Below, in pieces: positions 1 through 7,798 of a stretch of 64,000 bases of DNA (within the stretch, counting starts at the first letter, position 1; every line of letters starts with the position of its first letter). Below the pieces are notes generated by a model. The model was not told where the DNA came from and searched no databases. It saw only the letters and a list, made by a program, of their open reading frames with translations. A program made the position numbers and the translations under genes. This DNA is from Flavobacterium humi (GTDB lineage Bacteria > Bacteroidota > Bacteroidia > Flavobacteriales > Flavobacteriaceae): assembly GCF_004745595.1 (NCBI RefSeq), contig NZ_SRLH01000006.1, positions 124,001 through 188,000 of the forward strand. Reading direction: 5' to 3'.

Positions 1-843
1 TTTTGAATGTCTGATATATCCTTCTGTTATATTGATGCCTCTTAATATTGGCATTCCAGATTCATCATCACATATTTCCTCACCTTTAAGTGCTATTCCA
101 GAAAATAAATCAATAAAATCATCCACCTCTTTCAACATCCAAGCACCATCTTTCTCAAACTCCTTGAACCGATATTTCGGCACTTTCTTTCCCTCTTGCG
201 GAAAAAGGTTTTGCATCAAGCCTTTTTTGTGGTCTTTGAGTAAATCCAATTTTTGAGTTTGACCTGCAATTACTTCGTCTAAAGACGAAAGGCAGGATGC
301 GATTTTTTGTTGTTCTTGTGGGTTTGGAATTGGAACTTTTAGGTTGAGAAACGCAACTTTTGACAAGTTGTATCTAGTACTCCCTTGTGCTATTGCCGAA
401 ACAGACGTTCTATAAATTGGACTATGAAATAAGTATCGGGAAAATTGTGGTTGCGTTTTTTCTAATTCAAATGGTCTTAGGGCAAAGCAAAAACTATTCA
501 AATAAATATCCTCTTTAGGAGAATCAACAAGCACAGATGCAAAGCCAACTTCATCTGGAGTTTCTGAAGAAGTAGTATATAAAATGTCACCTTTCTGGAG
601 TGTGTTTTGGTTCTCATTTTCATCAATTTCAACTTTACCGCACTTTTGGTAATCTATAATGGAGTTGTCGAAAACTTGCTTGTAAGTTACATATGATTTA
701 CCTGTACCAAAATCTTCACCACTTTTACCAGTTAGCCCATTTATAGTTATGCCAAGCTCAGAAATTTTCTTTTCTGCCCAATCTCCATCATTCTCAAAGT
801 CAGGAAAACGCAATTCAGGTGTTAATTTTTTCTTCTTACTCAT
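1..843 (-). CDS. hsdS: Type I restriction-modification specificity subunit HsdS (partial, cut by window edge)
   Basis: The reading frame is open on the minus strand from an ATG at 843 to the window edge, giving 281 codons of the N-terminal part. It opens with a lysine-rich segment followed by TPELRFPDF, the usual beginning of Bacteroidota HsdS proteins. It then has a first target-recognition domain (about residues 25-175) and the conserved helical spacer with NPQEQQKIASCLSSLDEVI (about 178-198) and LLKDHKKGLMQNLFPQ. The second recognition domain is just beginning when the sequence ends. HsdS gives the DNA-binding specificity of the HsdR2M2S complex. Its ATG overlaps the hsdR stop by 8 bp (ATGAGTAA), so the two are translationally coupled. 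Product certain to family; target sequence cannot be told. Confidence 0.93.
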   Translation of the reverse strand, partial: MSKKKKLTPELRFPDFENDGDWAEKKISELGITINGLTGKSGEDFGTGKSYVTYKQVFDNSIIDYQKCGKVEIDENENQNTLQKGDILYTTSSETPDEVGFASVLVDSPKEDIYLNSFCFALRPFELEKTQPQFSRYLFHSPIYRTSVSAIAQGSTRYNLSKVAFLNLKVPIPNPQEQQKIASCLSSLDEVIAGQTQKLDLLKDHKKGLMQNLFPQEGKKVPKYRFKEFEKDGAWMLKEVDDFIDLFSGIALKGEEICDDESGMPILRGINITEGYIRHSK

Positions 844-3832
844 ACGCTGCTAATCCTGAAATTTCACGCCCTTGGGCAAGTTTTTTTAATTGTGGTACTA
901 AATCTTCCATCAATGCCAACTCTTTTACTCTGCGTTCTTTCCAACTCAAATCCAATGGTGCTAAAAGGTCGGTTAGTTTTTCACCGTCAAAAATCATTCG
1001 GCTCGTTATCTTTTCAATAAATTTTTTTAAGTCAGTCGTTTGCAAGCCGTGTTTGTTAGCAATTGTCGCTATTTCCTTATTGTACTTATCGTCTTTAAAT
1101 TTGTCATAGCCCTTGCGAAGCATTTCAACATCTTGTCCGCTTTCCCAATCTAAACCATTGATATATTCAGTTAAATCTTCTTCTTCATCCATTAAATTGG
1201 AATTGGATTTCAACAAGCTAATCACTTGTGATTTAGTCATTTTTTGCTTGGCAGGTTTCTTTTGTGTGCTGTCGGCAATCAAACTCATTATGTAATCGTA
1301 ATCTATTACGGCAGAAGCAAACAACACAAATTCAAAATCAAGTTGCTGAATTTCAGGCGGTGCATTTTCACCTTCTTTTTGTTGTATTTCTCGTAACTGC
1401 TTGGCTGTTTCTATGTACGAACTACGGAACTCTTGCAAAGATTCTTCGGGCAAAATAGCTTCAATTTTTGCTTTTTGTTTTTCGTCTATGTCCGTGTATT
1501 GGTCAAGCTGTGTTTTTAACCTTTGTACTTCTTTGAAATTTTTCACAAAGGCAATTCTTGCTGCATCACCTTTTAAATTGTAAACTTCCTGTGGTTCGTT
1601 TACCAAATTATGCTCCTGCATAAATACACCCAATTTCTCAACCGCTTCTTTGTACTTGTCAATCATTACAGGTGCAGGGTCAACCAACCAAATTTCTCTT
1701 GCTTTTCCTTTGTCTTCTCCTGAGAACAATGCAATGGCTTGATTTACGGAATCCTGTTGCGAACGGAAATCTAAAATATTTCCATAAGGTTTGGTGTCGT
1801 TCAATACACGGTTTGTTCTTGAAAATGCCTGAATCAATCCGTGGTATTTCAAATTCTTGTCCACATACAAGGTATTCAAGTATTTGCTATCGAAACCCGT
1901 GAGCAACATATCTACTACTATGGTAATGTCAATTTTATTCTCGTGTGAATAATCTTTGTTGCTGTATTGTTGGTCTTTGATTCGTTTTTGTACATCTTGA
2001 TAGTACAAATCAAATTCATTGATGATGTGATTGGTGTTAAATTGCTTATTGTAATTTTCTATTATTTCCGTTAATGCTTTTTTCTTCTCTTCTGGATTTT
2101 GTTTGTTATCCTCACGTTCTTGCGTCAAATCTTCCTGTAATTGTTTGATGTCAGCCGCATTTTTTTGACTTTGTTGGTCCCCTTGTTTAGCAATGAGTTG
2201 AGAAGGTGGCGAAAACACACAAGCAACATTTAATGGGGCATACTCAGTATTTTCCGTTTGTTTCTTCTTTTGAATTTCTTTGAATAACTGATAATATTCA
2301 ATTGCATTATTGATGGATGCCGCAGCCAAAACCGCATTAAATTTTCGTGAATTGGTGGCAGCATTGTGTTTGGTTAAAATTGCTTCTACAACTGCTTGTC
2401 TTGAAATAACCTCTCCTGGTTTTTGATTTTTGTTGCCTTTGAAATAATCAATATGAAAACGCAATACATTTTTATCTTCAATAGCGTGTGTAATTGTGTA
2501 TGCGTGTAGTCTTTTTTGGAAAATGTCTTCTGTAATTTTATAAGAAGCGTATTCGCCTTCTCTTATGCTGTACGTGGCATTTTCGTCAAAAATAGGTGTA
2601 CCTGTAAAACCGAATAATTGAGCATTTGGGAAAAACTCTTTAATCGCTTTGTGATTTTCACCAAACTGCGAACGGTGACATTCGTCAAAGATAAAAACGA
2701 CACGTTTTTTACTCAATGGCTCTAATCGCTCTTTATAGTTTTTCTTGTAAGTTCCATCCAATGCCAAGCCTAATTTTTGAATGGTGGTAACAATTACTTT
2801 GTCGGCATAATCTGTAGAAAGTAAACGCTTTACTAAAGTTTCAGTATTTGTGTTTTCTTCTACGCTTCCTTCCTGAAATTTATTGAACTCCTCACGGGTT
2901 TGTCGGTCAAGGTCTTTACGGTCAACCACAAACAAACATTTTTCAATTTCGTGATTGTCCTTTAAAAGGGTAGAAGCTTTGAAAGAAGTTAAGGTTTTAC
3001 CGCTACCTGTGGTGTGCCAAATGTAGCCGTTACCTCTGTTTTGTTTAACACATTCTTCAATTGCCTTTACTGCATAAATTTGATAAGGTCGCATAACGAG
3101 CAATTTCTGTTCGCTTTCCACCAAAACCATATACTTGCTTATCATTTCACCAAGTGTGCACTTGCCAAGAAACTTTTCAGTGAATGAATCAAGGTGAGTA
3201 ATTTTCTTATTGCTTTCGTCTGCTAATTGATAAATCGGTAAAAACTGTTCATCTGCATTAAATTGAAAATGCTGAATCTTGTTATTTGCAAAATAGTAGG
3301 TGTTACTTCTATTACTAACAATGAACAATTGCATAAAGCAAAGCAATGAATTTCCGTAACCGTTGCCCGCTTCGTTTTTGTAATCTACGATTTGCTGCAT
3401 TGCTTTTCGTGCTGAAATGTCGAGCTTCTTTAACTCGATTTGCACCACTGGTAAGCCATTAATCAGTAATATGATGTCGTAGCGTTGATGACTGTTTTCG
3501 GTATTTATACGTAACTGACTTATAACTTCAAAATCGTTTTTGCACCAATCTTTTATATTTACCAATGTGTAATGCAATGGTGTTCCGTCCTCACGTTGGA
3601 AAAATTGTCTTTCACGCAATTTCTTAGAAGCTACAAATACATCAGAGTTTATAATTTCCTCTCGAAGTCTTAAAAACTCATTGTCTGTCAAGTGAACACG
3701 GTTAAGTTCTTCAAATTTTGCTTTGAAATTTTGCTCAAGCGTTTTCCTGTCAACTATGTCTGGTCGGTAAATGTATTTCAGCCCTTTTAGTTGCTCTATG
3801 AGGTTTAATTCTATTTGATTCTCTTTACTCAT
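836..3832 (-). CDS. hsdR: Type I restriction enzyme R subunit HsdR
   Basis: This 998-residue protein is the motor and nuclease subunit of a type I restriction enzyme. The N-terminal HsdR nuclease domain has D119 and an E133-L-K135 motif, a PD-(D/E)xK-type active site. A superfamily 2 helicase/translocase core follows, with Walker A TTGSGKT (274-280), DECH box (383-386), a FTGTP motif and a C-terminal FSRTNRVLN motif VI. The length is normal for HsdR and no frameshift is visible. Its start overlaps the upstream XRE gene by 4 bp (ATGA) and its end overlaps hsdS by 8 bp, so XRE-hsdR-hsdS is one tight operon. No methyltransferase gene hsdM lies in view; one is expected downstream of hsdS beyond the window edge. 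Confidence 0.97.
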   Translation of the reverse strand: MSKENQIELNLIEQLKGLKYIYRPDIVDRKTLEQNFKAKFEELNRVHLTDNEFLRLREEIINSDVFVASKKLRERQFFQREDGTPLHYTLVNIKDWCKNDFEVISQLRINTENSHQRYDIILLINGLPVVQIELKKLDISARKAMQQIVDYKNEAGNGYGNSLLCFMQLFIVSNRSNTYYFANNKIQHFQFNADEQFLPIYQLADESNKKITHLDSFTEKFLGKCTLGEMISKYMVLVESEQKLLVMRPYQIYAVKAIEECVKQNRGNGYIWHTTGSGKTLTSFKASTLLKDNHEIEKCLFVVDRKDLDRQTREEFNKFQEGSVEENTNTETLVKRLLSTDYADKVIVTTIQKLGLALDGTYKKNYKERLEPLSKKRVVFIFDECHRSQFGENHKAIKEFFPNAQLFGFTGTPIFDENATYSIREGEYASYKITEDIFQKRLHAYTITHAIEDKNVLRFHIDYFKGNKNQKPGEVISRQAVVEAILTKHNAATNSRKFNAVLAAASINNAIEYYQLFKEIQKKKQTENTEYAPLNVACVFSPPSQLIAKQGDQQSQKNAADIKQLQEDLTQEREDNKQNPEEKKKALTEIIENYNKQFNTNHIINEFDLYYQDVQKRIKDQQYSNKDYSHENKIDITIVVDMLLTGFDSKYLNTLYVDKNLKYHGLIQAFSRTNRVLNDTKPYGNILDFRSQQDSVNQAIALFSGEDKGKAREIWLVDPAPVMIDKYKEAVEKLGVFMQEHNLVNEPQEVYNLKGDAARIAFVKNFKEVQRLKTQLDQYTDIDEKQKAKIEAILPEESLQEFRSSYIETAKQLREIQQKEGENAPPEIQQLDFEFVLFASAVIDYDYIMSLIADSTQKKPAKQKMTKSQVISLLKSNSNLMDEEEDLTEYINGLDWESGQDVEMLRKGYDKFKDDKYNKEIATIANKHGLQTTDLKKFIEKITSRMIFDGEKLTDLLAPLDLSWKERRVKELALMEDLVPQLKKLAQGREISGLAAYE

Positions 3833-4017
3833 TCTTCTTTCAATAAATCTTTGGCATTAACATCCAAAATTTTTGCAATTCGGTACAAATCTTCAAGGCT
3901 TGGTTGTCTCACATTGCGAGAATACTCGTTAATTGTGTTGTAACTTTTATCCAACTTCTTAGCAAGCCAAGTTTGGGAAATGCCTTTTTCTTTAAGTACT
4001 TCTTTAATTCGGTTCAT
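3829..4017 (-). CDS. XRE-family helix-turn-helix regulator of the restriction operon
   Basis: This 62-residue protein is essentially a single Cro/C1-type helix-turn-helix domain: ISQTWLAKKLDKSYNTINEYSR covers helices 2 and 3 and IAKILDVNAKDLL is the last helix. Such small HTH proteins commonly act as autoregulators of restriction-modification genes (controller proteins), although C proteins are best known from type II systems. It is the first gene of the operon and its stop overlaps the hsdR start (ATGA), which ties its dose to that of HsdR. An imperfect palindrome at 4061-4075 just upstream of its promoter is a plausible operator. Regulation of the operon is inferred from position and family, not shown. 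Confidence 0.85.
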   Translation of the reverse strand: MNRIKEVLKEKGISQTWLAKKLDKSYNTINEYSRNVRQPSLEDLYRIAKILDVNAKDLLKEE

Positions 4018-4043
4018 TGAAGCCTAATTAATTTTTAACAGGT

Positions 4044-4051
4044 CAAAGATA
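4044..4051 (-). promoter_or_regulatory. Promoter -7 element of the XRE-hsdR-hsdS operon
   Basis: On the minus strand this reads TATCTTTG, an exact match to the Bacteroidota -7 consensus TAnnTTTG. It lies 26 bp upstream of the ATG of the XRE gene, so a leader of roughly 20 nt is expected. No clear TTG box is present at the usual -33 distance; that position is close to the palindrome at 4061-4075. Confidence 0.6.
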
Positions 4052-4060
4052 GTAAAATTG

Positions 4061-4075
4061 CACTGCTGAGTAGTG
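4061..4075. promoter_or_regulatory. Candidate operator dyad for the XRE regulator
   Basis: CACTGCTGAGTAGTG is an imperfect 15-bp palindrome with CACT and AGTG ends, mismatched at the centre and at one symmetric pair. It sits immediately upstream of the -7 element, where a bound repressor would block RNA polymerase. A second dyad with a perfect core, ACAATATTGT, follows at 4085-4094. Small XRE proteins usually bind sites of this size as dimers; assignment is by position only. Confidence 0.45.
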
Positions 4076-4223
4076 TAAATGTCCACAATATTGTCGTGGG
4101 TGAATAGGGGCAAGCTTTTTTGGTTTTTCAGCGTTGGCTTTTGCCAAATCCCAAACCAATCAAAAGTAATATGGATATACCTAAAAGCAAAAACCTACTC
4201 CGTAATGGAATAGGTCTTCTGTT

Positions 4224-5852
4224 TTATTTAAAAAGGTTCATTTTTCCAAAACCACCGTCAATACAGGTTTCAACGACACATTGTGTTTTGTATTTTTCTG
4301 GGACTTCATCAATAAAGTTATACTCCGATAATACATCATAACATGTGTCCAAACTCGATTCTGTTAGATAACTACCGTATTTTATCCTGAATCTTTTGAA
4401 AAATTCATCGATTGTTATTCGTTTGGTTTTGGTTTCCATGGCAACCGCTTCCGCTTCATTGGTATCATCAGCATCACCCGCAACCGAATCCATAATAGCG
4501 CATTCAACCTCATTTTTTGCGCTGGTATCTTTAACACAGGTTTTAACACCATGCTCCAAAATGATTCGGTTCATGGTTTCCATTACCACCGTTTTATCTT
4601 TTTCCTCGCATAACAACGCATCATAAACGTATAGGACATAAATCCCAATCGAATTAAGGTATTTTATAACATCGGTCATTATTACAACTTCGAGCTTAAA
4701 CATTTTTTGCGAAGTGATTTTGTGACCATTGGTTTTTTTGTCATGGTAAAGCCTTGAAAGCATATTCGCTTCATTTTTGGAATAATAATTAAATAATGGT
4801 GATGCTGTCATACCGTGCCAATTTTTATTGAAAAAGCTCAAATGCTCAATCTTCACCAATTTTTCATCAATTCCAGCCAGTTCCGCTATTTTCTCATGCG
4901 TTAAATATTCATGTTTGCCTTGGTACAGGTACATTGCTAAATTCGGGTGCAACGCCCTGTAATCGCATTCAACCAACTTTTTGCCATCTATGGTAATTTC
5001 ATTGCGAATCCATGCAGGCATCAACGTGAAAGAATCCACCACACGCCCACCACTTTTATGGTCTCCAGCGACTGGAATCATAAAGCCTCGGTTGGTCAAG
5101 TATTCAAATATTTTGATGTGGTCTTCCACAAATCTCCTATTGTCGGCATCTGCCCAGTAACTATTATCATGCTTGTTTCGCATGGTCAGGATTTTGCCTT
5201 TTTTGGTTGTGTATTTGTTTTTTACCAGTTGTTTCCCAATCTCCAGAAATTCTTTGGATGTAGGCAATTCAATTCTAGGGTATAACTTCACGAGATTGTA
5301 GCAGATTGTATTTTCCAAAGCTTCATTAAACAGCCTGTAATAGATTTTGTTTCTGTTTTGGATAATTCCGTTGTCTTTGATAATATAGTCGGTTAAACCT
5401 GGCTTAAAATAACTGTCAGGTAACCTGTATTTTCTGGAGTGTCCGCCTTTGACATAACGACCATCAACTTCAATCATAGCTCCCGTTGAAGTACCCGCAA
5501 GCAAAGCTTCAATGATTCTTGGATAAACGAAAGTATTGTCTTTGTTTTTGGTCTGTTCGTGAAGTATTTTAGAATTTAGGTGCTTCCAGCGGTCATCTGT
5601 GTAATGTGTGCTGGCAAGATTCGATGCCACCAAAAGGCATTTTTCCACTGCCACATCAATATCGGGGTCGATTGCTTTTAAAAGTTCTTCTGAAACATGT
5701 TTTCTTAGGTTGGTTTCCATTTTTTTCGGAATCCAAATCGAATTAACATTTGGGAAGATTAGGGCTAATTCGGCAAAATTTTCATCATGGTGAAGGATTT
5801 GTAAATCCTCTGTATCGCCTGTAAGCGATAGGTAATCGTTTTTAAGATTCAT
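4224..5852 (-). CDS. Uncharacterised protein with family-A-polymerase-like palm motifs
   Basis: I do not recognise a named family for this 542-residue protein, but it has the hallmarks of a polymerase palm. Motif A-like ECDYRALHPNLAMYLY (296-311, D298) resembles the DYSxIELR motif of family A DNA polymerases. A motif B-like stretch KIEHLSFFNKNWHG (334-347) has the spaced Lys and aromatic residues. A motif C-like YVLYVYDALLCEE (405-417, D411) matches the hydrophobic-HDE pattern with Tyr in place of His. The order and spacing (D298 to D411, 113 residues) fit a compact polymerase. The N-terminal part has a GGHSRKYRL segment (136-144) that looks like a winged-helix DNA-binding piece. There is no 3'-5' exonuclease domain evident and no YxDD reverse-transcriptase motif. 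It is a single gene behind a structured leader, in a mobile island beside a restriction system. Replication protein of the element or a defence/polymerase protein are both possible. Confidence 0.6.
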   Translation of the reverse strand: MNLKNDYLSLTGDTEDLQILHHDENFAELALIFPNVNSIWIPKKMETNLRKHVSEELLKAIDPDIDVAVEKCLLVASNLASTHYTDDRWKHLNSKILHEQTKNKDNTFVYPRIIEALLAGTSTGAMIEVDGRYVKGGHSRKYRLPDSYFKPGLTDYIIKDNGIIQNRNKIYYRLFNEALENTICYNLVKLYPRIELPTSKEFLEIGKQLVKNKYTTKKGKILTMRNKHDNSYWADADNRRFVEDHIKIFEYLTNRGFMIPVAGDHKSGGRVVDSFTLMPAWIRNEITIDGKKLVECDYRALHPNLAMYLYQGKHEYLTHEKIAELAGIDEKLVKIEHLSFFNKNWHGMTASPLFNYYSKNEANMLSRLYHDKKTNGHKITSQKMFKLEVVIMTDVIKYLNSIGIYVLYVYDALLCEEKDKTVVMETMNRIILEHGVKTCVKDTSAKNEVECAIMDSVAGDADDTNEAEAVAMETKTKRITIDEFFKRFRIKYGSYLTESSLDTCYDVLSEYNFIDEVPEKYKTQCVVETCIDGGFGKMNLFK

Positions 5853-5976
5853 TGTATATTCTCTTATTCTGCTTCACCCAGCGTGTGGGTGATTATTGTT
5901 TTTGGCTCCTACACTCGGTAAGAGAAGCTGGGGTAATTACTCCCCAGCAACCAAGGATTTTAATGAGTTTTCTCTC
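5853..5976 (-). promoter_or_regulatory. Structured 5' leader of the polymerase-like gene
   Basis: The minus-strand leader contains a 7-bp hairpin (GCTGGGG 5927-5933 with CCCCAGC 5942-5948). It is followed by an 8-bp closing stem (TTCTCTTA 5859-5866 with TAAGAGAA 5919-5926) that encloses another 7-bp hairpin (TCACCCA 5874-5880 with TGGGTGA 5886-5892). The outer stem ends six bases before the start codon. The 3' arm of the first hairpin (CCCAGC) can instead pair with GCTGGG of the inner hairpin, so two mutually exclusive folds are possible. This could be an attenuator, an autoregulatory site, or part of a functional non-coding RNA. It matches no riboswitch class I know. Confidence 0.55.
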
Positions 5977-5983
5977 ATATGTT

Positions 5984-6014
5984 CAATTATACTAACAAAT
6001 CTGAAAACAGTCAA
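5984..6014 (-). promoter_or_regulatory. Promoter of the polymerase-like gene
   Basis: On the minus strand a TTG (6012-6014) is followed after 20 bp by TATAATTG (5984-5991), which matches the Bacteroidota pattern TTG-N20-TAnnTTTG with one mismatch. The same bases also read as TTGACT, 17 bp, TATAAT, the classic sigma-70 arrangement of other phyla. Such a promoter could work in a broad range of hosts. Transcription would start near 5976, about 124 nt before the start codon. Confidence 0.6.
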
Positions 6015-6039
6015 GCACTTTGAAGGACTATTTTTTAAA

Positions 6040-6260
6040 AACTTTTATTTACTGGTTTTGGAATAGCGCAAACAGTGCATAAACATATTAATCCAATACT
6101 TCTCTATTACCTTATTTTATTGGTATTACATAAGATTATTATACAATATATTTAAGTAACATATATGAGTATAAATGAAGAAATAATAAGAAAATAGTAA
6201 GAAGATATTAATAGAAATAATACTAAATAAAATAATTAGTACTTAATAGTAGTAGAAAAT
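6040..6260. other. AT-rich non-coding gap between two divergently placed island genes
   Basis: I see no gene here. The stretch is very AT-rich, with loosely repeated purine/AT blocks such as AATAATAAGAA, AATAGTAAGAA and AATAATACTAAATAA between 6175 and 6235. A replication origin for an excised circular form of the element would look like this, next to a polymerase-like gene, but there are no exact iterons. Confidence 0.3.
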
Positions 6261-6293
6261 TGCAAAACTTTAATGTAGTGGGTGTGGCTGATG

Positions 6294-6521
6294 CTAAGCA
6301 CCAACAAATAGCGCAGATATTTCAACATTTAGCGCTTTAGCAATACGGATGCACTTGTCAATTCCCATGATTTGCTTACCTAACATATAACGTCTGAGAG
6401 CTTCAATGTCCAAATCAGCATCATGAGCCACATGTCTTACTTTCAGATTTTTATCCTCGATAATTTTTTTAATGTTAATACCAACATTTTTGACTGATTC
6501 AGGAATTTCCGTTTTTCTCAT
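6294..6521 (-). CDS. Small XRE-like helix-turn-helix protein
   Basis: The chosen start gives 75 residues beginning MRKTEIPESVKN. A longer in-frame start at 6563 exists, but its extra 14 residues (Tyr/Phe/Cys rich) do not look like part of the fold. The sequence KNLKVRHVAHDADLDIEALRRYMLGKQ followed by CIRIAKALNVEISALF is a Cro/C1-type HTH with the final helix typical of XRE proteins, though the recognition helix is somewhat divergent. It is encoded alone, divergent from the lipoprotein gene and downstream of the AT-rich gap. It is likely a repressor belonging to the mobile island. Its target is not evident. Confidence 0.7.
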   Translation of the reverse strand: MRKTEIPESVKNVGINIKKIIEDKNLKVRHVAHDADLDIEALRRYMLGKQIMGIDKCIRIAKALNVEISALFVGA

Positions 6522-6606
6522 CTTATATTCATTAAGACACGAAAAGTATAAGTAACGTGTCAAAAAAACAGGAACGTATAATTCCAGTCATATTCGTCTG
6601 TTTTTA

Positions 6607-6614
6607 TATATTTG
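6607..6614 (+). promoter_or_regulatory. Promoter -7 element of the FISUMP lipoprotein gene
   Basis: TATATTTG matches TAnnTTTG exactly and lies 20 bp before the ATG at 6635, which suggests a very short leader. No convincing TTG box is seen at the -33 position. Confidence 0.5.
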
Positions 6615-6634
6615 TTTGATTAATAATTTATTTT

Positions 6635-7798
6635 ATGAAAAATTATACCTTAAAAACGCCAGCTTTAATAATCCTGTCTTTTCTTTTTGTGAATTGCAAA
6701 AACAACAATGCTGAGAATAAAAATTTGCCTTCCCCAAATGTTAGACCTTTAGAAGAAAGTTCCAATAGCGGTGAAACTTCATCGTATCAATCCGAAACGG
6801 TTAAAATTGGTGGACTGGAATGGACTTCAATAAATTTGGAAGTGAGTACATTTAAAAATGGTGATACTATTTTCCATGCGAAAACTAATAAAGAATGGGA
6901 ACGAGCTGGAAAACTTCACATACCCGCCTACTGTTATTATGACAATAATCCACTAAATGGTGATATATACGGGAAACTTTATAATTGGTATGCGGTTATG
7001 GACGAAAGGGGACTTGCACCCGAAGGTTACTTTATTCCAAGCGATAATGAATATTGGGTTTTGCTGGGTCACTATAATATGTATCAACATTCAGACAATG
7101 AAAGAAGTTCGCAAGCATCTTCAAAGCTTCAAACTAGAGGTTCAGGGTCATTTCAGGCTGTGCTTGGTGGGTATCGAATGGAAACGGGTGGTTTTGCTAA
7201 AATCGATGAAGCTGGACATTGGTGGTCGTCAGAAAATTTTTGGAAGCAAGGTTTAAACGGTTCTGAAATCAAAATCCAACCAAGCGAATTATATATGGAT
7301 GATACTTTTGTTTCAGGACCTGGGGCTGGTGTATATGATGCTGGGTGTGGGTATTCAATTCGATGTGTTAAAGGTGAATCTATGAGAACTACTAAGATAC
7401 CAGTTTTAGAAAATGAACATATCGAGGTTGATAAAAATGGAAAACTAAGAAATGGAGTAGTAACATTTTATAGTAGTATGGGGAACGTTTCAAAAACATT
7501 TGTTAATGGTGTTGAAAATGGCGAACGATTAAGTTTTAGTCCTTACGGTGATTTGCTTAGCAAAGAAATGTATAAGAAAGCTCAGTTGAATGGTTTATCA
7601 ATTTACTACCATGACAGCCATTGGAAGCATAAAACACATGAAGGAAATTATGTTAATGGGAAAAAAGAAGGCGAATGGATATATTATGATTGGATTGCAA
7701 AACCAGAGCTAGCTGAAAAATTTGAAATGCGTATCACAAAAAGAGAGTACTATCAGAATAATGAAAAAATAAAAACAGTTTATGAACCCCAACCTTAG
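6635..7798 (+). CDS. Lipoprotein with FISUMP domain and C-terminal MORN/YwqK-like repeats
   Basis: This 387-residue protein has a signal peptide ending in the lipobox FVNC (Cys21), so it is probably anchored in the outer membrane. Residues about 55-255 match the Fibrobacter succinogenes major paralogous (FISUMP) domain: a GLEWTSINL start, YGKLYNWYAV, GLAPEGYFIPSDNEYW, GGYR and wWSSE segments, and a terminal SIRCVKG. From about 265 onwards there are MORN-like units (GKLRNGVVTFY, AQLNGLSIYYH, NGKKEGEWIYYD), as in YwqK-type proteins. FISUMP proteins are abundant in Bacteroidota as surface proteins of unknown function. It is a stand-alone cargo gene of the island with its own promoter. No enzyme active site is visible. 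Confidence 0.85.
   Translation: MKNYTLKTPALIILSFLFVNCKNNNAENKNLPSPNVRPLEESSNSGETSSYQSETVKIGGLEWTSINLEVSTFKNGDTIFHAKTNKEWERAGKLHIPAYCYYDNNPLNGDIYGKLYNWYAVMDERGLAPEGYFIPSDNEYWVLLGHYNMYQHSDNERSSQASSKLQTRGSGSFQAVLGGYRMETGGFAKIDEAGHWWSSENFWKQGLNGSEIKIQPSELYMDDTFVSGPGAGVYDAGCGYSIRCVKGESMRTTKIPVLENEHIEVDKNGKLRNGVVTFYSSMGNVSKTFVNGVENGERLSFSPYGDLLSKEMYKKAQLNGLSIYYHDSHWKHKTHEGNYVNGKKEGEWIYYDWIAKPELAEKFEMRITKREYYQNNEKIKTVYEPQP

What the first reader, a model, noticed from the sequence alone, without database searches (positions are those of the whole stretch)
4224..6014. Uncharacterised polymerase-like protein behind a structured RNA leader
Seen: a 542-residue protein with motif A (D298), B-like and C (D411) segments in the order and spacing of a family A palm, but no exonuclease domain, and a leader with two hairpins and an outer stem ending six bases before the ATG. 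Known: polymerase-like genes with adjacent structured RNAs in defence or mobile contexts include retrons and DRT systems, but those use reverse transcriptases. Inference: it may replicate the island, or act as a template-using or template-free polymerase in defence, with the leader as template or regulator. It shares an island with a type I restriction system.
Basis: partly seen in the sequence, partly recalled or inferred. Interest (0 to 1): 0.8.

Follow-up and report, generated by a model that had tools for sequence, protein, structure and literature searches.

The report
Mobile-element polymerase behind RNA switch
A Flavobacterium mobile island carries a small phage-type DNA-copying enzyme whose gene starts right after a folded RNA, and the same folded RNA sits in front of several unrelated replication genes of other Flavobacterium mobile elements, so it is most likely a shared on/off switch for copying such elements rather than a template for a defence enzyme.

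Summary
The 542-aa protein has a family A polymerase palm by AlphaFold2/Foldseek. Its catalytic aspartates are D297 (not D298) and D411, kept in 44 of 44 aligned relatives, 16 viral. The leader's "outer stem" is a pseudoknot strand ending six bases before the ATG, conserved in the 13 closest loci with compensatory changes. The surprise: a covariance model of the leader also hits directly before other genes: a second polymerase-like family, replication-initiation-like proteins and a BT4734-like primase. Across 21 distinct arm sequences the start-codon-side complement (6 nt or more) is present in 18, against at most 5 in 300 derangements. Relatives lie in phage contigs with terminase, portal or tail genes, one beside a clamp loader and an exonuclease. 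Best reading: an exonuclease-less family A replicase of mobile elements under a translational RNA switch shared with other replication genes. Template-in-defence is disfavoured. No Rfam family matches. The trigger is unknown.

The parts
4224..5852 (-). exonuclease-less family A polymerase-like protein, 542 aa (residues 1-28 and 445-476 have pLDDT under 50; the C-terminal stretch ~466-542 is absent from the short group B proteins)
4962..4964 (-). codon of motif A aspartate D297 ([EK]-x-D-[YF]-x-x-L-H-P-N)
   Evidence: invariant in 44 of 44 aligned relatives
4620..4622 (-). codon of motif C aspartate D411 (Y-x-[YF]-D-[AS]-[LI])
   Evidence: invariant in 44 of 44
4851..4853 (-). codon of invariant K334 (K-x-x-[HN]-x-S-x-[FL]-N), candidate motif B / O-helix lysine
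   Evidence: 44 of 44; the O-helix assignment is inference
5859..5866 (-). far pseudoknot strand TAAGAGAA, six bases before the ATG
   Evidence: pairs with 5919-5926
5919..5926 (-). pseudoknot arm PK5, TTCTCTTA
5906..5911 (-). near copy TAGGAG, alternative partner of PK5 (6 pairs with one G-U; only 3 Watson-Crick pairs in a row, so weak in this window)
   Evidence: the minimum-energy fold pairs PK5 with this side
5914..5955 (-). stem P1 (5955-5951 with 5918-5914) enclosing hairpin P2 (5948-5944 with 5931-5927) and PK5
   Evidence: 100% of cells paired in both stems on alignment A2
5874..5892 (-). hairpin P3, TCACCCA/TGGGTGA, between the two pseudoknot strands (a hairpin with other stem sequences is found there in 13 of 13 group A leaders)
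5964..5977 (-). 5' hairpin P0, TGAG/CTCA
   Evidence: 90.4% of cells paired
5986..6014 (-). promoter-like TTGACT-17-TATAAT before the leader
   Evidence: sequence; not tested for activity
6062..6072 (-). box 2, TTTGCGCTATT; the same kind of site lies inside the coding sequence of groups B and C, where the CG is kept as an NCG codon
6155..6165 (-). box 1, TATATGTTACT, near the 5' edge of the ~330-nt conserved upstream unit
6294..6563 (-). 89-aa HTH regulator upstream, same strand; similar HTH genes stand upstream of leaders in 7 other loci
836..3832 (-). type I restriction subunit HsdR, cargo neighbour

Best explanation
The gene encodes a small DNA polymerase of family A type, without a proofreading domain, that serves (or served) as the replication protein of a mobile element related to Flavobacterium phages and satellites. 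Its mRNA leader is a cis-acting translational switch. A pyrimidine-rich arm inside a stem-loop can pair with a nearby purine copy or, forming a pseudoknot, with a second copy lying just before the start codon. The choice sets whether the ribosome can start. Because the same leader stands before unrelated replication genes, it must be read by something common to these elements (a host or phage factor, an antisense RNA or a small molecule) and not by the polymerase itself. Shown here: fold class, conserved catalytic residues, purifying selection, pseudoknot covariation, position before the start codon, shared leader in front of different replication-type genes. Inferred: DNA polymerase activity, translational control, which state is 'on', and the trigger.
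For: Fold. The closest predicted viral folds are ~400-aa phage proteins, one named putative DNA polymerase I (E 7.7e-13). D297, K334, D411 kept in 44 of 44. dN/dS about 0.11-0.24 in 8 pairs (computed). Relatives in 16 IMG/VR loci; of 7 neighbour proteins picked by eye from 7 of these loci, PHROGs names 4 terminase large subunits, 1 portal and 1 tape measure protein, and the seventh matches mainly a family of unknown function. In L086 a clamp loader (phrog_168 E 2.5e-51) and an exonuclease (phrog_107 E 5.7e-17) follow. Leader covariation. R1: 22 hits in 19 of 398 Flavobacterium genomes, namely 12 before this polymerase, 2 before a second polymerase-like family, 7 before replication-initiation-like genes, 1 before a BT4734-like gene. 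R2: 22 hits in 20 of 199 genomes, namely 9, 3, 8 and 1, plus 1 followed by a transposase frame. The two searches overlap in genomes. The second family matches ours profile to profile (probability 95%, E 2.5e-8, aspartates aligned). Arm against derangements. Flavobacterium johnsoniae lacks Shine-Dalgarno sequences and its initiation is tuned by mRNA structure (PMC6847099, abstract and passages). Shared upstream HTH and small genes.
Against: No transcript, translation or polymerase data. The replication-initiation PHROG matches are modest (best replication-initiation match per protein E 4e-7 to 1e-3) and rest on winged-helix similarity; L104, L107, L111, L118 and L121 were placed there only by visible similarity to scanned ones. 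The near copy is weak in the window itself, and in L040, L065, L119, L120 and L121 the nested (no-pseudoknot) ensemble gives it 2% or less, so a two-state switch is not shown for every member. Of 38 model hits, 7 have no far complement of 6 nt, among them L072, L075 and L087, where no convincing one was seen at all. Group B (0 of 10) and most of group C (5 of 6 without a hit) lack a detectable leader, so the polymerase does not need it. The family-level search found the RNA in no other genus (1 of 199 genomes, the own one), with strict filters and a model trained on Flavobacterium.
Confidence: 0.55

Rival explanations
1. Copy-number control as in IncI/IncFII-type plasmid rep leaders: a pseudoknot upstream of the replication gene allows its translation and an antisense RNA from the same locus blocks it.
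For: Pseudoknot directly upstream of replication-type genes of different kinds. The plasmid precedent is recalled; its papers were seen only in the listing.
Against: None tested: I did not search for an opposite-strand promoter or an antisense RNA in any call, so this stays open.
Confidence: 0.2
2. Autogenous control: the polymerase binds its own leader and represses its translation, as T4 gp43 does (recalled).
For: The leader ends at the start codon and is kept with the polymerase in 13 of 13 group A loci.
Against: The same RNA stands before non-polymerase genes, and the leader is undetected in 10 of 10 group B loci with the same polymerase family.
Confidence: 0.12
3. A defence system of the DRT or retron type with a family A polymerase that copies the leader RNA.
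For: Solo gene beside a type I restriction system; patchy distribution (32 of 398 genomes); DRT2 also uses a neighbouring pseudoknotted ncRNA (PMC12039810, start of abstract in the listing).
Against: The leader is shared with unrelated replication-type genes; an arm complement stays close to the start codon; the protein has a family A fold, with only weak low-ranked matches to reverse transcriptases (DRT2 E 0.14, DRT9 E 0.17); no PADLOC hit; homologues are phage genes.
Confidence: 0.06
4. The conserved upstream block is a DNA origin or recombination site, and its transcript structure is incidental.
For: Box 1 and box 2 upstream of the promoter are conserved at the nucleotide level even where they are coding.
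Against: That block is separate from the leader; in the leader compensatory changes keep pairing between strands, and the far strand stays by the start codon.
Confidence: 0.05

Closest known systems
Family A DNA polymerases (Klenow fragment, Bst, Taq, T7 DNA polymerase, apicoplast apPol; bacterial groups PolA1-PolA3)
   Same: Palm/fingers fold over residues ~180-444; motif A and C aspartates
   Different: No 3'-5' or 5'-3' exonuclease domain matched; motif C reads YDAL where Pol I has HDE (recalled); no Pfam match. The survey PMC12926913 (section 15 read in full, passages of others, supplements not seen) describes PolA1 with both exonuclease domains, PolA2 with a vestigial 3'-5' exonuclease and PolA3 with an intact one plus phage homologues; that section describes no exonuclease-less group.
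Short phage polymerase-like proteins of ~400-440 aa (A0A8D9FR19, Rheinheimera phage Barba31A polymerase) and phrog_4756
   Same: Best structural matches and the best sequence-family match
   Different: This protein is longer (542 aa), with a C-terminal stretch found in group A, and sits in a chromosomal island behind an RNA leader
Pseudoknotted leaders of plasmid rep genes (IncI repZ, recalled)
   Same: A pseudoknot immediately before the start of a replication gene
   Different: No Rfam match; one arm with two possible partners; shared by unrelated replication-type genes; antisense RNA not tested
DRT2/DRT9 and retron ncRNA-polymerase systems
   Same: Structured, pseudoknotted RNA next to a polymerase gene
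   Different: Those use reverse transcriptases and a dedicated ncRNA (recalled, and listing); here the RNA runs up to the start codon and also precedes non-polymerase genes

Membership tests
Family A DNA polymerase | Palm fold of the PolA/T7 type | tested here: met
   VIA Z 12.2, 249 residues aligned, rmsd 4.0; Foldseek E 7.6e-5
Family A DNA polymerase | Motif A and motif C metal-binding aspartates | tested here: met
   D297 and D411 in 44 of 44
Family A DNA polymerase | Motif B / O-helix lysine | tested here: inconclusive
   K334 invariant in 44 of 44 but not superposed on the O-helix
Family A DNA polymerase | Template-directed DNA synthesis | not testable with these tools
   needs an enzyme assay
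DRT / retron-type defence system | Reverse transcriptase | tested here: inconclusive
   no RT family in Pfam or PADLOC; the fold search ranks family A polymerases far above weak RT matches (E 0.14-0.17), which does not exclude RT activity
DRT / retron-type defence system | ncRNA dedicated to the polymerase | tested here: not met
   same RNA before replication-initiation-like and primase-like genes
Known Rfam RNA family | Covariance-model match | tested here: not met
   no hit at E<=1 in window 3600-6700; in 7 other leader loci only two sub-threshold hits, both in L105 and outside its leader
Cis-regulatory leader RNA | Conserved pairing with compensatory change, close to the start codon | tested here: met
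Cis-regulatory leader RNA | Effect on expression | not testable with these tools
   needs a reporter assay
IncI/IncFII-type rep leader | Antisense RNA opposing the leader | not tested
   no search made; no transcript data

The most novel reading that the evidence does not exclude
A new class of RNA switch, found so far in Flavobacterium and its phages, that mobile elements with entirely different replication proteins (two polymerase families, O-like initiators, a primase) all use to start replication in response to one shared cue, possibly infection by a helper phage or a host metabolite. Replication genes would be swapped as cassettes behind a common RNA sensor.
Probability: 0.2. Interest if true: 0.85.

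Novelty: new variant of a known kind. Interest (0 to 1): 0.62.

Why it matters
If right, many Flavobacterium mobile elements obey one RNA-level control that is independent of which replication protein they carry. That would make the question of what triggers these islands directly testable with a reporter, and it gives a handle (the leader model) for finding such elements. The polymerase family adds an exonuclease-less family A clade, spread over phages and chromosomal islands, that the Pfam and NCBIfam models scanned here do not recognise.

Tried and rejected
Single-sequence scan of viral contigs with the window protein: no relative; the profile scan then found 16 loci. tblastn of the window protein in plasmids and phages: none. 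PDB by sequence: none. A Penelope-like idea (polymerase plus GIY-YIG nuclease moving together) was considered after and dropped: the GIY-YIG gene (one member scanned, L050, Pfam E 1.9e-6) was seen only behind group B polymerases, which stand in a replication module with an AAA/Sak4-like ATPase and DUF3871, and it resembles phage homing endonucleases. A DNA pattern for the leader in viral contigs found nothing. R2 in 199 family-level genomes found only the own genome. tblastn of the other leader-borne genes: L102 and L067 hit the same 6 unannotated metagenomic phage records of 595-735 kb; L117 and L105 none in phages, L106 none in plasmids. No exonuclease fold appeared in the structure searches; a fold that is not listed is not excluded.

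Rows dropped or duplicated: the 44 sequences are 28 chromosomal plus 16 viral ones, among them near-identical viral pairs (L076/L077, L083/L084, L087/L088); the broken or partial copies and L067 and L069-L073 were not in it. L077, L084 and L088 were left out (13 of 16 viral loci given). In some searches, 4 of the 38 rows of A6 (L072, L075, L087, L116) were dropped because no start codon was set; the starts of L105 and L109 were set 4 nt too far upstream, corrected. In one search the near and far windows overlap by 8 nt, so 'near' counts include some far matches, and the far window can reach into coding sequence (L076). One search repeats the far test with a window tied to the start codon. BLAST E-values are for a database of four sequences; one search is the better test. 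The statement that this RNA was not found in print rests only on the library searches (listings) and on Rfam.

Full report
The window is G000:C11:124001-188000. I take the genus to be Flavobacterium because contigs of same-genus genomes have the same lengths as named Flavobacterium records. The ORF 4224-5852(-) encodes 542 aa. Pfam, NCBIfam and PADLOC do not know it; PHROGs gives phrog_4756 of unknown function (E 2.1e-11) and a weak phrog_20866. Matches, full-length or partial, occur in 32 of 398 genomes of the genus, 4 of 397 family-level and 3 of 395 phylum-level genomes, the own genome counted each time (one of the last is a 26-position match), and in 16 viral loci. I use four informal groups: A, the 13 loci closest to the window (54% identity or more to it, plus the broken copy L046); B, L047-L055 and L061; C, L056-L060 and L062; D, the viral ones.

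Protein. With 28 sequences AlphaFold2 gives pLDDT 82.5. dN/dS of about 0.11-0.24 in eight pairs (from the values) shows purifying selection. Of seven neighbour proteins picked by eye from seven viral loci, PHROGs names four terminase large subunits (L076, L083, L085, L089), a portal (L079) and a tape measure protein (L087); the one of L078 matches mainly a family of unknown function. In L086 a clamp loader and an exonuclease follow the polymerase. Group B genes stand in a module with an AAA/Sak4-like ATPase and DUF3871 and are followed by a GIY-YIG gene (L050 was the member scanned). A replication role is the plain reading.

Leader. In 13 of 13 group A loci the ORF is preceded by the same leader: hairpin P0, stem P1 enclosing hairpin P2 and an eight-base pyrimidine arm, hairpin P3, and the far strand (TAAGAGAA in the window) a few bases before the start codon. 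P0, P1, P2 and the pseudoknot together have 97.9% of cells paired and 7 of 22 pairs with double changes; none of 500 shuffles reaches these, and slid structures pair at 38-52%; the count of further pair types is not raised (487 of 500 shuffles as high). A hairpin P3 with quite different stem sequences is found in 13 of 13.

The leader is not private to the polymerase. The covariance model R1 (built without the pseudoknot) hit 22 places in 19 of 398 genomes: 12 before this polymerase, 2 before a second polymerase-like family (L102, L110), 7 before replication-initiation-like genes (L103-L107, L109, L111) and 1 before a gene with a BT4734-like domain (L108, Pfam E 1.1e-4). R2, trained on 24 leaders, hit 22 places in 20 of 199 genomes, partly the same: 9 before this polymerase, 3 before the second family (L102, L113, L120), 8 before replication-initiation-like genes (L105, L109, L114, L115, L117, L118, L119, L121), 1 BT4734-like, 1 followed by a transposase frame (L116). 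PHROGs was run on L103, L105, L106, L109, L114, L115, L117 and L119 (best replication-initiation match E 4e-7 to 1e-3); L104, L107, L111, L118 and L121 were placed by visible similarity. The second polymerase-like family matches the window's family in a profile comparison (probability 95.2%, E 2.5e-8) with both aspartates aligned. R2 also hits before the phage polymerases L075, L076, L078 and, weakly, L087, before L067 of the second family, before L072, and before one group C gene, L057 (E 0.085); it found none at 10 of 10 group B and 5 of 6 group C loci.

Two partners for one arm. Among 38 aligned leaders, 34 have a Watson-Crick complement of 5 or more nt to the arm within 28 nt after P1 and 31 one of 6 or more nt further down; over 24 distinct arm sequences the counts are 23 and 18, against at most 9 and 6 in 300 derangements (means 4.2 and 2.2) (the windows overlap by 8 nt). 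With the window tied to the start codon, 34 of 34 leaders have a complement of 5 or more nt within 32 nt before it and 30 of 34 one of 6 or more, with gaps of -1 to 17 nt; over 21 distinct arms the counts are 21 and 18, against at most 11 and 5 in 300 derangements (means 5.4 and 1.7). The nested fold of the window's leader pairs the arm with the near side, and the pseudoknot uses the far side, so the two exclude each other; in some leaders, however, the near pairing is negligible in the nested ensemble. In Flavobacterium johnsoniae, which lacks Shine-Dalgarno sequences, initiation is tuned by mRNA structure (PMC6847099, abstract and passages). A translational switch follows as inference.

Element. 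In the 1500 nt upstream of the 38 leaders, an HTH gene like the window's 89-aa one recurs before polymerases (L037, L045, L046, L113) and before replication-initiation-like genes (L105, L117, L118); an 81-aa gene (L038, L041, L102, L117, L118) and a 50-60-aa gene (L041, L044, L102, L117, L118) are shared in the same way (BLAST E<=1e-4). HTH similarity alone is a weak link; the two small genes strengthen it. The replication gene therefore looks like an exchangeable part of one kind of island, with restriction genes as cargo in this window.

A second cis element. Upstream of the promoter, group A has TATGTTACT and, about 90-100 nt on, TTNCGCTA in 12 of 12 loci listed (L065 has too little upstream sequence). 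A like site lies inside the coding sequence of groups B and C; at the CG position 16 of 16 genes use an NCG codon (9 Pro, 5 Ala, 2 Ser), although CCG and GCG make up 14% and 11% of their Pro and Ala codons. Box 1 is less general there (not found in L051 and L060 by the pattern). Phage L076 has the boxes in noncoding DNA before its leader. It may be an operator or origin; this is open.

Comparison. The survey of bacterial DNA polymerases PMC12926913 (section 15 in full, other passages) describes PolA1-PolA3 and, in that section, no exonuclease-less group. PMC2864571 (passages) lists Bacteroidetes RNA motifs, many with Rfam numbers; no Rfam family matched the leader. The listings showed nothing on this leader. 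T4 gp43 autoregulation and IncI repZ control are recalled, not looked up.

Verdict. Observation confirmed with two corrections. The polymerase is a new member of a known kind; the leader is, as far as searched, an undescribed cis-acting RNA family shared by unrelated replication-type genes, and that is the real interest.

Noticed in passing
window 6062-6165 (-); coding starts of the polymerase genes in L047-L062: A two-box nucleotide element is noncoding upstream of group A polymerases but coding inside groups B and C, where 16 of 16 genes keep an NCG codon at the CG. Possible operator or origin.
   Followed up: partly
L047-L050, L052-L055, L061, directly 3' of the polymerase: A GIY-YIG homing-endonuclease-like gene follows group B polymerases (read; L050 scanned, with NUMOD1).
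   Followed up: partly
L102, L110, L113, L067, L120: A second, diverged polymerase-like family (motif A D-x-K-[NSG]-[SA]-Q, motif C HDS/HDA), also behind the leader; L102 and L067 have relatives in metagenomic phages of 595-735 kb.
   Followed up: partly
L116: A leader with no replication gene directly behind it: a transposase-like frame (IS21-like, recalled) follows.
   Followed up: no
L107 and L111 (G292:C1:3570496 and 3573709): Two copies of leader plus initiator-like gene 3.2 kb apart in one genome, each next to a transposase-like gene pair.
   Followed up: no
L046, L061, L063, L064, L066: Fragmentary or interrupted copies of the polymerase gene (in L061 a second, partial one), which suggests turnover of these islands.
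   Followed up: no
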